From contig JAAZKV010000012.1 in NCBI GenBank assembly GCA_012799645.1, positions 1-46,704 on the forward strand: a DNA stretch of 46,704 nucleotides, given 5' to 3'. Below the pieces are notes generated by a model. The model ran no database searches. It worked only from the letters and a program-made list of their open reading frames with translations, and was not told the DNA's origin. Shown in pieces: positions 2,176 to 41,114 of the stretch. The number at the start of each line of letters is the position of its first letter. The stretch's first letter is position 1. The translations under genes were made by a program, and so were the position numbers. Origin of the DNA: Candidatus Iainarchaeum sp. (GTDB lineage Archaea > Iainarchaeota > Iainarchaeia > Iainarchaeales > JAAZKV01).

Positions 2176-2196
2176 GTTTTTTGCCCAAAAACTATG

Positions 2197-2268
2197 TGCC
2201 GGTGATGACAAAACATTATTCTGATAGTTCTACACGGACAAATGATGAATGATGGGCGAACTGAGGCA
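2197..2268 (+). ncRNA. C/D box guide sRNA
   Basis: All four boxes are present in order: C box GTGATGA (2202-2208), D' box CTGA (2221-2224), C' box ATGATGA (2242-2248) and D box CTGA (2261-2264). A terminal stem TGCC (2197-2200) with GGCA (2265-2268) closes it. Each guide is 12 nt, directly upstream of D' and D. The D' to C' spacer is 17 nt, longer than usual. The D guide ATGATGGGCGAA can pair with UUCGCCCAUUA, which I recall as the archaeal 23S rRNA sequence just 3' of the A-loop; the D+5 rule points to the C after UUCG. No target was recognised for the D' guide. Nop5 and fibrillarin genes are at 39533 and 40458. Confidence 0.82.
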
Positions 2269-2269
2269 A

Positions 2270-2288
2270 AAATGGATTTTTTCCATTT
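2270..2288 (+). other. 7-bp hairpin directly 3' of the sRNA
   Basis: AAATGGA (2270-2276) pairs perfectly with TCCATTT (2282-2288) around five T residues. It begins two bases after the sRNA terminal stem. It could be a processing signal or a partial terminator between the sRNA and the lig coding region; no oligo-T run follows, so read-through into lig seems likely. Confidence 0.4.
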
Positions 2289-2337: not shown

Positions 2338-4161
2338 ATGTTATTCAAAATTGTTGCAAATTGTTTTGACAAAATAGAGAACACTCCTTCTCGACTCACC
2401 ACCACTGATTTTTTGGTAGAATTATTTGAAAACACTGACTCTGAAGATACAAAAAAAATTGTTTATTTACTACAAGGAAGAATCGCCCCCCAATTTGAAG
2501 GAAAAGAAATTGGTTTTGGAGAAAAACTAATAATTGAAGGAATAGTAAAAGCAAGCGGATACAAAAAAGAAGAAGTTGAAAAAAACTATAAAAAAACAGG
2601 AGATCTTGGAGAAACCGCGCAAAAATTAATCGAAGAAAAAAAACAAAACACTCTATTCACACAAGAACTATCCCTAGAAAAAGTTTTTCAAAATTTGGAA
2701 AAAATGTCAATACTAGAAGGAACAGGATCACAAGAACAAAAAAAGAAACTACTAGCAGAATTATTCAATTACGCAACACCAATAGAAGCAAAATACATTG
2801 CAAGAATTCCCTTAGGAAGCATTAGACTTGGAGTAGGAGATCCAACAATAATGGATGCTTTTGCAATAATTTTAGCAAAACAAGAAAATAAAAATTATTT
2901 AGAAAAAAGTGAAGAAGAGAGAAGAAAAATAAAAATTGAGTTAAGAGAAAAAATAGAAAACGCATACAATGTTGATTCTGATCTTGGAGAATTATGCAAA
3001 ATTTTGCAAGAAAAAGGAATTAAAGGATTAAAAGAAATAAAAATAAAACCAGGAAAACCAATAAGACCAACCGCTGCAGAAAGATTACCGAACGCAAAAG
3101 AAATAATAGAAAAACTAGGAAAGTGCGCAGTAGAAGCAAAATATGATGGGTTCAGATTACAATTATCAAAAGATGGAGAAAAAATAAAAATATTTTCAAG
3201 ACAAAGCGAAGACATTACTCAAATGTTTCCTGAAATAATTGAAGCTGCACAAAAAGAAATCAAAGCAAAAACTTGTATAATAGAAGGGGAAGCACTAGCA
3301 TTCAATGAAAGCACACAAGAATACTACCCCTTCCAAATAACAATCCAACGAAAAAGAAAATACGAAATAGAAAAAAAAGCACAAGAATATCCACTCAAAC
3401 TTTTTTTATTTGATGTAATGTATGCTGATGGAATAAATTATATGGAAAAACCATTAATAGAAAGAAGAAAAAAATTAGAAACACTCGTAAAAGAAGAAAA
3501 TGAAATAATAAAATTAAGTGAATACATCATCACTGATTCAGCTACTGAACTAGAAAACTTTTTTGAAGAAAAAATATCACAAGGACTTGAAGGAATAATA
3601 GCAAAAGACCTCTCTGCACCCTACATTGCAGGGGCAAGAAAATTTGCTTGGATAAAACTAAAAAGATCCTACAAAGGAAACCTAAATGATACACTTGATT
3701 TAGTAATTATAGGATACTATAAAGGAAAAGGAAAAAGAACAGAGTTTGGACTCGGAGCACTACTAGTAGCAACATACAACAACACCAATGACACTTTTGA
3801 AAGTGTAGCAAAAATTGGAACAGGAATGAGCGAAGCAGATCTAACAGAACTCAAAGAACTATTAACAAAAATTGTGACAAAAAACAAAAACCCAAGAATT
3901 GTTTCAGAAATAGAACCTGATTACTTTGTAGAACCAAAATACATAATTGAAGTGAATGCAGATGAAATCACAAAAAGCCCAATGCACACTTGTGGAAAAA
4001 CAAAAACAGAAACAGGATATGCACTACGGTTCCCAAGAATGTTAAAACTAAGAATTGATAAAAAAGCAGAAGAAGCAACAACAAGTAAAGAAGTAAAAAA
4101 ACTACACGCAATGCAAAAAAAAGTATCACTAGAAATGAAGGATTATTTGAAAAAAGAATAA
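2338..4161 (+). CDS. lig: ATP-dependent DNA ligase
   Basis: 607 residues from the ATG at 2338, preferred over the in-frame TTG at 2323 because GAGGGG lies just upstream of it. It has the archaeal ligase I layout: N-terminal helical DNA-binding domain (about 1-225, with ARIPLGSIRLGVG), adenylation domain (about 240-430) and OB domain. The nucleotidyl lysine is K268 in EAKYDGFR; EGEALAF, EGIIAKD and WIKLKRSY match later nucleotidyltransferase motifs. It seals nicks in replication and repair using ATP. No TATA box is evident between the sRNA and the ATG, so lig is probably expressed on a transcript that starts upstream of the sRNA. Confidence 0.95.
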   Translation: MLFKIVANCFDKIENTPSRLTTTDFLVELFENTDSEDTKKIVYLLQGRIAPQFEGKEIGFGEKLIIEGIVKASGYKKEEVEKNYKKTGDLGETAQKLIEEKKQNTLFTQELSLEKVFQNLEKMSILEGTGSQEQKKKLLAELFNYATPIEAKYIARIPLGSIRLGVGDPTIMDAFAIILAKQENKNYLEKSEEERRKIKIELREKIENAYNVDSDLGELCKILQEKGIKGLKEIKIKPGKPIRPTAAERLPNAKEIIEKLGKCAVEAKYDGFRLQLSKDGEKIKIFSRQSEDITQMFPEIIEAAQKEIKAKTCIIEGEALAFNESTQEYYPFQITIQRKRKYEIEKKAQEYPLKLFLFDVMYADGINYMEKPLIERRKKLETLVKEENEIIKLSEYIITDSATELENFFEEKISQGLEGIIAKDLSAPYIAGARKFAWIKLKRSYKGNLNDTLDLVIIGYYKGKGKRTEFGLGALLVATYNNTNDTFESVAKIGTGMSEADLTELKELLTKIVTKNKNPRIVSEIEPDYFVEPKYIIEVNADEITKSPMHTCGKTKTETGYALRFPRMLKLRIDKKAEEATTSKEVKKLHAMQKKVSLEMKDYLKKE

Positions 4162-4569: not shown

Positions 4570-5556
4570 ATGAAGGTTTTTGAATTACTAGTGTATGCAA
4601 TAGTTGCAATTGCTTTAATTTTTATTGTGCTAACCCTTTTTAATATACCAAACGAAAATAACCTTATTCAAGAACTAAAAGAAAGCATTATTGTTGCACA
4701 AACAAAAGATTTTATGGGAAAAACAGTAAAACTTGAAACCGAATTAATTGAAAAAGATTTTTATTTAAGTAAAAATGCGTTTGAAGATGCATTAATATCA
4801 GTAGCACTTGAATGTAACAACCCAAACCTTTGTTGTATAAGAAAAGCAGAACAAATCGAAAACCAAATTTGCACAAAAAATATTAGTTGGGATTATGATT
4901 TTATGAAGTTGGAAAATGAAACAACCCTAAAAATAAGTGTTAGGTGTTTGAACGATTTAAAATTACCTATTTGTAGAATATACTTTGGATCATACCCCGC
5001 ACAAGCAGAAATTGTTGAAATAAACAAATCAACAAATGAACAAAATGGAAAAATAATTTCAACAATAATTGTAAAAAATAATGGTGAAACACAACTAAAT
5101 GCAGGGCGATTACAACTAACTCTGCAAAAAAATGTTGTTGGAGAATGGGAAGATATTATTGATGCTATCCAATACGAAATACAAGAAGTGCAATACCTTC
5201 TCCCACAACAAGAACACACATTTACTCAAGAAATAAACATCACCACTAGTGGAAAATACAGGTTGTTATACAAATTTTCTGGAATAAATGCAGGGTTTGA
5301 TGAAAAATATTTGGAAATAGAACACTCCCAAAATCTTTGCACAATAATTGAAGAAACAAATTATGAAATACAAACCATTGAAGATGGAAAACTTTATAGA
5401 GAAATAAAAAAATGCGAAAACTGTAATTATGCTTATGAATGTGCAACAAAATGGCAAACAAAATACCCAAATGTGGATTACCAAATATTAACAAAAGACA
5501 AAACTTATTGTGAAAAAACAAACGAATTTAGTACTTGTGAATCAGAAGCAAGCTAG
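4570..5556 (+). CDS. Membrane-anchored extracytoplasmic protein, unknown
   Basis: 328 residues from the ATG at 4570; a TTG three codons earlier is less likely. One N-terminal hydrophobic segment (about 5-26) should anchor the protein, with the rest outside the cell. The middle (about 150-250) has beta-strand and Asn/Gly patterns of an Ig-like or CARDB-like domain (KIISTIIVKNNGETQLNAG). Cysteines cluster in two groups: CNNPNLCC near 80, and about 255-325, including the CENCNYAYEC segment, consistent with disulfides. No enzyme motif is visible. It is followed at 5596 by gatD. Confidence 0.7.
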   Translation: MKVFELLVYAIVAIALIFIVLTLFNIPNENNLIQELKESIIVAQTKDFMGKTVKLETELIEKDFYLSKNAFEDALISVALECNNPNLCCIRKAEQIENQICTKNISWDYDFMKLENETTLKISVRCLNDLKLPICRIYFGSYPAQAEIVEINKSTNEQNGKIISTIIVKNNGETQLNAGRLQLTLQKNVVGEWEDIIDAIQYEIQEVQYLLPQQEHTFTQEINITTSGKYRLLYKFSGINAGFDEKYLEIEHSQNLCTIIEETNYEIQTIEDGKLYREIKKCENCNYAYECATKWQTKYPNVDYQILTKDKTYCEKTNEFSTCESEAS

Positions 5557-12397: not shown

Positions 12398-12417
12398 ACT
12401 TTCACGCTTTACAAAAG

Positions 12418-12507
12418 TGGGCAGGATGAGATTTGAACTCATGACCGCACGATAACTACCCCATTCAGGATATCAGTCGTGTGCTCCACCAACTAAGCTA
12501 CCCGCCC
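12418..12507 (-). tRNA. tRNA-Ile(GAT) with 17-nt intron
   Basis: On the minus strand the acceptor GGGCGGG pairs with CCTGCCC (one G-U), followed by discriminator A (12418). The D arm GCTT...AGC, T8, and T arm ATGAG/CTCAT with TTCAAAT loop are standard. The anticodon stem CACGA/TCGTG leaves loop CTGATA plus A once a 17-nt insertion (12454-12470) after position 37 is removed. Anticodon GAT is at 12474-12472. The canonical 37/38 position marks it as an archaeal intron, although I could only draw a relaxed bulge-helix-bulge. A TATA-like TTTAAAGC lies about 25-35 bases upstream on the minus strand. Confidence 0.93.
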
Positions 12508-39433: not shown

Positions 39434-39532
39434 ACTCCCCAGCTCTCGAATAAATAAAGAAAAACACCCTTATATTCTTTTCTAAACACTTGATAATTAG
39501 CAAAATAACGAATTTTAAAGGTAAAGAGATTT

Positions 39533-40411
39533 ATGAATCAAAGAGAATTTTTGAGAAAACAAATGCTAAAAAAAACAAGAGAACAAATAGAAGAAAAATT
39601 TGCTGGAAAAGAAATACACATAATTAAAGCAATAAATTTACTAACTGATCTTGAATCAATAAATAACTTAATGACAGAAAATTTAAACGAGTGGAAACTA
39701 AGACAACCCACAGGAGAAGCCGAAAAAGAATTTTTGAATTTAGAAAAAAATGTTAAAAATATTAATGAACAAAAAGAAAAACTAATAGAATTTATTGAAA
39801 AAGAAATGAGTACAGAATTCCCTAATTTTTCAACAATTGCAACACCAATAATTGGGGCAAAATTACTTGCAAGTGCAGGATCTAAGAAAAAACTATGCTT
39901 TGCTCCAGCATCAACAATACAAGTATTAGGAGCAGAAAAAGCACTATTCAACCACATAAAACACAAAACAAGATGCCCAAAACACGGACACATATTCAAC
40001 CACCCACTACTGCAAAGGTTACCAAAACAAAAAAGAGGAAAAGCAGCAAGAGTAATAGCAGGAAAATTATCAATCGCACTAAAACAAGATTATTTTGGTG
40101 GAGAAAATAATTCAAAAATGGTTTTTAAAGAACTTGAAAAAATAATTGAAAAAATTTCAAACGAACCAGAAAAAATAAAAAAACCAAATCAACCTTCACA
40201 AAAAAATAAACCCGAACACCGAACATTTACTCCCGAAGAAAGAAGAGCATTTTTTGAAAAACAAAATAAAGAAAAAACTTTTTACAAAAACAACAAAACA
40301 ACTAACCAAACAACACCACAAAACTCAAATAATAAAAAAACAACCAATAAAAAAGATTTCAAAAAATTTAATAAATTTAAAAAATTCAAAAAGTTCAAGA
40401 AAAGAAACTAA
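39533..40411 (+). CDS. nop5: Nop5-like C/D sRNP core protein lacking the N-terminal domain
   Basis: 292 residues, against roughly 370-420 in the archaeal family. Residues 1-60 correspond to the start of the coiled-coil region of normal Nop5, a shortened coiled coil (about 60-95) follows, then the NOP domain (about 95-205) with LASAGSKKKLCFAPASTIQVLGAEKAL, a K-turn RNP binder. The fibrillarin-binding N-terminal domain (about 110 residues) is missing, and the 99-base gap upstream leaves no room for it. The tail is Lys/Asn/Phe-rich (FKKFKK units). GAGATTT precedes the ATG. flpA follows 46 bases later. Confidence 0.88.
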   Translation: MNQREFLRKQMLKKTREQIEEKFAGKEIHIIKAINLLTDLESINNLMTENLNEWKLRQPTGEAEKEFLNLEKNVKNINEQKEKLIEFIEKEMSTEFPNFSTIATPIIGAKLLASAGSKKKLCFAPASTIQVLGAEKALFNHIKHKTRCPKHGHIFNHPLLQRLPKQKRGKAARVIAGKLSIALKQDYFGGENNSKMVFKELEKIIEKISNEPEKIKKPNQPSQKNKPEHRTFTPEERRAFFEKQNKEKTFYKNNKTTNQTTPQNSNNKKTTNKKDFKKFNKFKKFKKFKKRN

Positions 40412-40457
40412 TTTGCCAAAAAAATAATATAACAATTAATGTTTTTGGGTGAAAAAA

Positions 40458-41114
40458 ATGAAAAAACTTTTTGAAGGAATATATTCTGATTCAAAATCAA
40501 TTTACACAAAAAACCTAAACAAAGGAAAAAAAGTGTATGGAGAAAAAATAATCAATAAAAATAATGAAGAATACAGAGAATGGAATCCTTACAGATCAAA
40601 ATATTGTGCAGGAATAAAAAATGGGTTGAAAAAAAATATTTTTTTTGAAGGATGCACTGCACTATATTTAGGAAGTGCAGAAGGAACAACAGTAAGCCAC
40701 ATCTCAGACATTGTTGAAAAAAACGGGGCAATATTTTGTGTTGATTTGAGCGAAATAGCAATGCACAAATTAACCAAACTTGCAGAAGAAAGAGAAAACA
40801 TTTACCCCATACTTAGTGATGCACAAAGAATTGAAAATTATAAAGAATTTTTAGAAGAAAAAGTAGATGCACTATTTCAAGATATTTCACAAAGAAATCA
40901 AGCAGAAATATTTTGCAAAAACGCAGCATTTTTAAAAAAAGGATCTTATGGATGCTTGTCATTAAAAACCAAAAGTATTTCCCAATCAAAAACCAAACAA
41001 GACATACTAATTGAAGAAAAAAAAATATTAGAAAAAGAATTTATGATTGAACAAATACTATCAATCGAGCCATACGAAAAAGAACATTACTTAATATTAG
41101 TTAAGAAAAAGTAG
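40458..41114 (+). CDS. flpA: Fibrillarin-like rRNA/tRNA 2'-O-methyltransferase
   Basis: 218 residues from ATG 40458 (GGGTG upstream). The methyltransferase of C/D box sRNPs. Landmarks: VYGEKIINKNNEEYREWNPYRSKYCAGI, SAM site ALYLGSAEGTTVSHISDIV, CVDLS, ILSDAQRIENY, ALFQDISQRNQAEIF and LSLKTKSIS, which supply the catalytic Asp and Lys positions. The family usually has AVEFS and a D after K-x-R-S-I; those positions are diverged here. It pairs with nop5 upstream and with the guide RNA at 2197. Confidence 0.94.
   Translation: MKKLFEGIYSDSKSIYTKNLNKGKKVYGEKIINKNNEEYREWNPYRSKYCAGIKNGLKKNIFFEGCTALYLGSAEGTTVSHISDIVEKNGAIFCVDLSEIAMHKLTKLAEERENIYPILSDAQRIENYKEFLEEKVDALFQDISQRNQAEIFCKNAAFLKKGSYGCLSLKTKSISQSKTKQDILIEEKKILEKEFMIEQILSIEPYEKEHYLILVKKK

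What the first reader, a model, noticed from the sequence alone, without database searches (positions are those of the whole stretch)
39533..40411. Nop5 without its fibrillarin-binding N-terminal domain
In archaeal C/D sRNPs, the Nop5 N-terminal domain holds fibrillarin and the coiled coil dimerises the particle. This protein starts at what corresponds to the coiled-coil region, has a shortened coiled coil, and keeps an intact NOP domain with the ASTIQVLGAEKAL signature. The upstream gap is only 99 bases and then a divergent gene, so a lost domain cannot hide there. Fibrillarin is next door and looks active, so it must be recruited in another way: directly by the short coiled coil, by the Lys-rich tail, or by a separate protein. 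This would be a minimal C/D methylation particle.
Basis: partly seen in the sequence, partly recalled or inferred. Interest (0 to 1): 0.62.

Follow-up and report, generated by a model that had tools for sequence, protein, structure and literature searches.

The report
Phylum-wide Nop5 lacking fibrillarin-binding domain
In a whole phylum of small archaea (Iainarchaeota/Diapherotrites), the scaffold protein of the RNA-guided rRNA methylation machine has lost the domain that elsewhere holds the methylating enzyme, yet the guide RNAs still evolve in step with their rRNA targets, so the enzyme is probably held some other way.

Summary
The 292-aa ORF at 39533-40411 is a Nop5 that begins at the coiled coil; a confident AlphaFold model is all-helical with no N-terminal domain (NTD). 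It is not peculiar to this genome: Nop5 starts at the same point in the loci read across the phylum Iainarchaeota (Nop found in 79 of 87 genomes, 25 of 25 that are at least 90% complete). An NTD profile from 22 other archaea finds nothing credible in the 87 genomes, but finds the domain in 12 of 16 controls. Only the shortened coil is specific to the window's family, and it has precedents (A. fulgidus, Thermoplasmata). The particle looks active: fibrillarin is the next gene; the genome carries box C/D guide RNAs, one inside the window (2196-2270); another has two 12-nt guides fully complementary to own 23S rRNA, and its A-loop guide co-varies with the rRNA between families. Published NMR says fibrillarin binds exclusively through the Nop5 NTD. 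Best reading: fibrillarin docks elsewhere, perhaps on the newly conserved N-terminal helix (LRKxL..K..V.E); the docking site is inferred, not shown. The Lys-rich tail is excluded as a general recruiter, because the sister genus lacks it.

The parts
39533..40411 (+). nop5 gene: Nop5 without NTD, 292 aa
39539..39601 (+). N-terminal helix (residues 3-23) with the signature LRKxL..K..V.E; candidate fibrillarin-docking element (inferred)
   Evidence: helix in model; L7 90%, R8 90%, E21 84% in NTD-less proteins against 27%, 55%, 32% in NTD-bearing ones
39611..39817 (+). shortened coiled coil (helices 27-57 and 62-95)
39821..40162 (+). NOP domain (about residues 97-210), with ASTIQVLGAEKAL
   Evidence: matches 3gqx/3gqu, TM-score to target 0.86-0.92
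40175..40408 (+). Lys/Asn-rich C-terminal tail, mostly low confidence; absent in the sister genus
40449..41114 (+). fibrillarin (FlpA), full length, Glu in SAM motif I (YLGSAEGTT)
   Evidence: PF01269 2.7e-69 over residues 4-220
39434..39532 (.). 99-base divergent intergenic gap, no hidden NTD
2196..2270 (+). box C/D guide RNA 'sR2': C, D', C', D boxes and GCC/GGC ends; D guide pairs over 9 nt with own 16S
   Evidence: pattern absent in 20 shuffles; 16S pairing alone p 0.11

Best explanation
The gene is the genome's only known Nop5, reduced to an N-terminal helix, a short coiled coil and the NOP domain. It belongs to a phylum-wide form (Iainarchaeota) that lost the fibrillarin-binding NTD. The particle probably still guides 2'-O-methylation: the NOP domain sits on L7Ae and the box C/D K-turns, the coil sets the dimer, and canonical guide RNAs select sites in 23S (A-loop and peptidyl-transferase region) and probably 16S. 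Fibrillarin is recruited without the NTD, most likely by direct docking on the N-terminal helix and base of the coil, with matching changes in fibrillarin. Shown here by computation: domain loss, its phylum-wide extent, full-length fibrillarin, guide RNAs, guide-target covariation. Inferred: methylation itself, the dimer, L7Ae, and the docking site.
For: NTD absent in the Nop5 loci read across the phylum; NTD profile negative in 87 genomes and positive in 12 of 16 controls; all-helical model. Fibrillarin in 85 of 87 genomes, usually the next gene. sR1 guide RNA in own genome (E 3.9e-14) with both guides fully paired to own 23S; A-loop guide co-varies with rRNA between families. First-helix signature strongly conserved only in NTD-less proteins; fibrillarin motif-I residue differs between NTD-less (E/Q/H) and NTD-bearing (S/A/T) archaea.
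Against: No direct evidence of a Nop5-fibrillarin contact: the complex could not be modelled. The helix conservation could serve dimerisation or RNA binding. The fibrillarin correlation rests on two independent events. L7Ae was not searched for. Published NMR found fibrillarin bound exclusively through the NTD in Pyrococcus (PMC7089733).
Confidence: 0.55

Rival explanations
1. A separate, unrecognised protein replaces the NTD in trans and bridges fibrillarin to Nop5.
For: Published archaeal structures need the NTD contact (PMC7089733; PMC3608112); a very divergent domain would escape a sequence profile.
Against: NTD profile negative in 87 genomes with good control sensitivity; no conserved small gene beside nop5-flpA in 27 loci.
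Confidence: 0.2
2. Fibrillarin is not tethered to Nop5 at all: it recognises the guide-target duplex held by L7Ae and Nop5, or acts on its own, and changes around its active site compensate.
For: Changes concentrated around the SAM and active-site loops (motif I S to E; AQP to SQ[KR]; SIDVT..P to SISQ in many members).
Against: nop5 and flpA stay adjacent throughout the phylum; a new helix signature in Nop5 suggests a protein contact.
Confidence: 0.17
3. The Nop5-sRNA particle has become a methylation-independent RNA chaperone, in the manner of Prp31, and fibrillarin works elsewhere.
For: Foldseek also matches Prp31; guide pairing alone would also keep covariation.
Against: The 5th nucleotide before box D' points exactly at the A-loop position equivalent to 2552, and fibrillarin remains the neighbouring gene.
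Confidence: 0.06
4. Artefact: a frameshift, wrong start or assembly error hides the NTD.
For: None found.
Against: Same start in genomes of many families, including single-contig assemblies; no NTD in any frame of the fetched Iainarchaeota loci.
Confidence: 0.02

Closest known systems
Archaeal Nop5 (aNop56/58) of box C/D sRNPs, e.g. Pyrococcus furiosus (3nmu, 4by9) and Sulfolobus solfataricus (3pla)
   Same: NOP domain with the GAEKALF signature, coiled coil, gene next to fibrillarin, canonical C/D guide RNAs in the genome
   Different: No NTD; coil shorter by roughly 55 residues in the window's family; conserved N-terminal helix signature
Archaeoglobus fulgidus Nop5p (1nt2)
   Same: Short coil of the same length by alignment
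   Different: Keeps about 47 further N-terminal residues and was crystallised with fibrillarin
N-terminally truncated Nop56/58 construct (3nvi)
   Same: Nearly the same domain make-up, coil plus NOP domain; per its title bound to L7Ae and box C/D RNA
   Different: A laboratory construct, not a natural protein
Prp31 of the spliceosome
   Same: NOP domain and coil fold; works without fibrillarin (partner statement from general knowledge)
   Different: Eukaryotic, no methylation guides, no fibrillarin neighbour

Membership tests
NOP-domain superfamily (PF01798) | NOP domain with curated-threshold match | tested here: met
   125.1 bits against cut-off 25.4
Canonical three-domain archaeal Nop5 | Coiled coil leading into the NOP domain | tested here: met
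   helices 27-57 and 62-95, shorter than usual
Canonical three-domain archaeal Nop5 | Fibrillarin-binding N-terminal domain | tested here: not met
Archaeal box C/D methylation guide sRNP | Fibrillarin gene, full length | tested here: met
Archaeal box C/D methylation guide sRNP | Box C/D guide RNAs with two guides and rRNA complementarity | tested here: met
   sR1 in own genome, both guides; sR2 in window
Archaeal box C/D methylation guide sRNP | L7Ae | not tested
Archaeal box C/D methylation guide sRNP | Nop5-fibrillarin complex | not testable with these tools
Archaeal box C/D methylation guide sRNP | 2'-O-methylation at guided positions | not testable with these tools
   needs RNA from the organism or reconstitution

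The most novel reading that the evidence does not exclude
An entire archaeal phylum runs RNA-guided 2'-O-methylation with a Nop5 that has no fibrillarin-binding domain, recruiting fibrillarin through a new interface on the N-terminal helix and coil; a similar loss occurred separately in at least one other archaeal lineage (L118).
Probability: 0.5. Interest if true: 0.75.

Novelty: new variant of a known kind. Interest (0 to 1): 0.62.

Why it matters
Structural work on archaeal C/D RNPs holds that fibrillarin is recruited through the Nop5 NTD (PMC7089733 says exclusively; PMC3608112 and PMC8413462 give it the same role). A phylum that lost it while guide RNAs and rRNA targets kept co-varying is a natural deletion experiment: it suggests that the NTD is dispensable, points to a replacement interface that can be tested by reconstitution, and offers a very small natural Nop5 (206-207 aa in the sister genus) for structural work.

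Tried and rejected
Free-standing NTD: none by profile; five weak hits in the phylum (best E 0.003) cover only parts of the profile, four of them inside long frames. Conserved small partner gene near nop5-flpA: none; the recurring neighbours are a tRNA-synthetase-like gene and a small protein of about 190 aa. Lys-rich tail as recruiter: rejected, absent in the sister genus. Shortened coil as the novelty: rejected, precedents in A. fulgidus and Thermoplasmata. The fibrillarin motif-I correlation has only two independent events, so it is kept as a lead. The sR2 D' guide has no convincing target, and its D guide's pairing with 16S is not significant alone. My first target scan used the wrong strand for some rRNA loci and was redone. 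Rfam gives only sub-threshold C/D snoRNA matches for sR1. Literature searches for Diapherotrites or DPANN Nop5 found nothing on this; the library is open-access only.

Full report
Observation. The ORF at 39533-40411 is real, 292 aa, and the only NOP-domain gene found in the genome. It matches Pfam Nop from profile position 78 onward, aligns to solved Nop5 proteins only from the coiled coil on, and a confident model (mean pLDDT 86.8, pTM 0.72) holds helices only: 3-23, 27-57, 62-95 and the NOP domain. The best structural matches are Nop5 chains, among them 3nvi, a construct cut at the N terminus. A relative with a long coil (L112) is likewise modelled without any strand. The gap upstream is 99 bases and holds nothing.

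Extent. The window belongs to Iainarchaeota: its nearest named relatives are labelled Candidatus Diapherotrites or ainarchaeum in public records (phylum name by inference from these titles). Nop was found in 79 of 87 genomes of the phylum and in 25 of 25 that are at least 90% complete. In the 60 loci whose protein I read, nearly all nearest start codons lie about 8-25 residues before the same anchor in the first helix; in a few the frame is open further upstream, but no locus holds an NTD. Nop5 of the other archaea sampled carries roughly 60-130 residues before that anchor, mostly with a recognisable domain. A profile of this domain (A2, 22 sequences) found it in 12 of 16 control genomes and nothing credible in the 87. 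Of the four controls missed, two bear an NTD-less Nop5 (L118, L134) and two a short or unclear one (L137, L121). The NTD is therefore absent across the phylum and not split off in recognisable form. The family of the window (two genera, ten genomes) has in addition lost roughly 55 residues of the coil. That second trait is not new: A. fulgidus Nop5 (1nt2) aligns without net gap over the coil, and several Thermoplasmata show a short coil.

Is the particle in use? Fibrillarin is found in 85 of 87 genomes, usually as the next gene, and here is full length. A strict C-D'-C' pattern is frequent in the class relatives f21 (4-15 per genome against 0-1 control hits), whose Nop5 equally lacks the NTD, and finds a recurring RNA elsewhere in the phylum. 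A sequence model of that RNA (sR1) finds it in the window's own genome at G000:C22:62186-62255, E 3.9e-14. Both sR1 guides pair over all 12 positions (two G-U pairs each) with own 23S rRNA, at LSU 2580 (A-loop) and 2609, 29 nt apart; random 12-mers of the window reach such a score in 0.5% and 1.5% of cases. By the N+5 rule the first points at the nucleotide equivalent to E. coli 2552 (numbering by my own alignment); modification at U2552 and/or G2553 is reported as always present in the species studied (PMC7994747). The A-loop itself differs between families (GAGGGGUUUACU here and in G074, GAGGUGUUAACU in most others), and the guide differs with it: own pairing scores 21-22 of 24 in G000, G055, G067 and G008, while cross pairing between the two types in these four falls to 15-18. 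G036 and G074 pair less well with their own rRNA (19 and 18), and one cross score is 20. This is good evidence that guide-target pairing is maintained. A second guide RNA lies inside the window at 2196-2270 (none in 20 shuffles). Its D guide core (GATGGGC) recurs in several genomes of the phylum and pairs over 9 nt with own 16S at what I take to be the C1402 equivalent, though this pairing alone is not significant (p 0.11) and some relatives' versions pair less well.

How fibrillarin is held. Published work places the fibrillarin contact on the NTD; one study states that fibrillarin interacts exclusively with it (PMC7089733). So another contact must exist, or the tether is dispensed with. The tail is excluded as a general answer: the sister genus has none. 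The first helix is the best candidate: in NTD-less proteins it carries L7 (90% against 27% in NTD-bearing), R8 (90 against 55, the rest Lys) and E21 (84 against 32), a constraint absent from the equivalent helix elsewhere. Fibrillarin has changed too: the residue after the alanine or serine of motif I is Glu in all Iainarchaeota sampled, Gln in L132 and L134, His in L118 and in the two lineages with a short or unclear NTD, and Ser, Ala or Thr in the 22 NTD-bearing archaea. The tree allows only two independent losses, so this is a lead and not a proof. I could not model the complex.

Verdict. A real and phylum-wide variant of the archaeal C/D RNP scaffold, not reported in the literature I could search. 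The domain loss and the maintained guides are well supported; the new recruitment route is inferred.

Noticed in passing
window 2196-2270 (+): A box C/D guide RNA lies in the window; its D guide recurs across the phylum and may target the 16S C1402 equivalent.
   Followed up: partly
L255 (G000 LSU rRNA) about 4080-4125 and relatives L254, L256, L267: The 23S A-loop reads GAGGGGUUUACU in the window's family and in G074, so the position equivalent to U2552 would be a G; the guide RNA changes with it.
   Followed up: partly
window 40449-41114 (fibrillarin residue 78) and relatives: SAM motif I carries Glu in all Iainarchaeota fibrillarins sampled, Gln or His in other lineages with lost or short Nop5 NTD, Ser/Ala/Thr elsewhere.
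   Followed up: partly
L005, L027, L046, L047, L054, L056, L057: Several Iainarchaeota Nop5 proteins have long repetitive R/G/F/P-rich C-terminal tails (RGDFKPRGEF and the like) that recall GAR domains.
   Followed up: no
L118 (Nop5 at about 4746-5489), L132, L134: NTD-less Nop5 also in a record labelled Nanoarchaeota and in two further archaeal MAGs; L118 looks like an independent loss on the tree.
   Followed up: partly
L041-L045 (G011-G014, G060): Two other divergent families have very short Nop5 and fibrillarin matching its profile only from position 22-41, as if its N-terminal part were reduced too.
   Followed up: no
L061-L079, L088, L112 and others: A tRNA-synthetase-like gene recurs beside nop5 in 22 of 27 loci searched (24 of them Iainarchaeota in label or kinship); it is not beside nop5 in the window.
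   Followed up: no
L066 and L078: Records titled Parcubacteria and Chloroflexota encode Iainarchaeota-type Nop5, so these contigs or titles look misassigned.
   Followed up: no
window 12417-12507 (-): ARAGORN reports a tRNA of undetermined identity (anticodon 'ga') beside tRNA-Gln.
   Followed up: no
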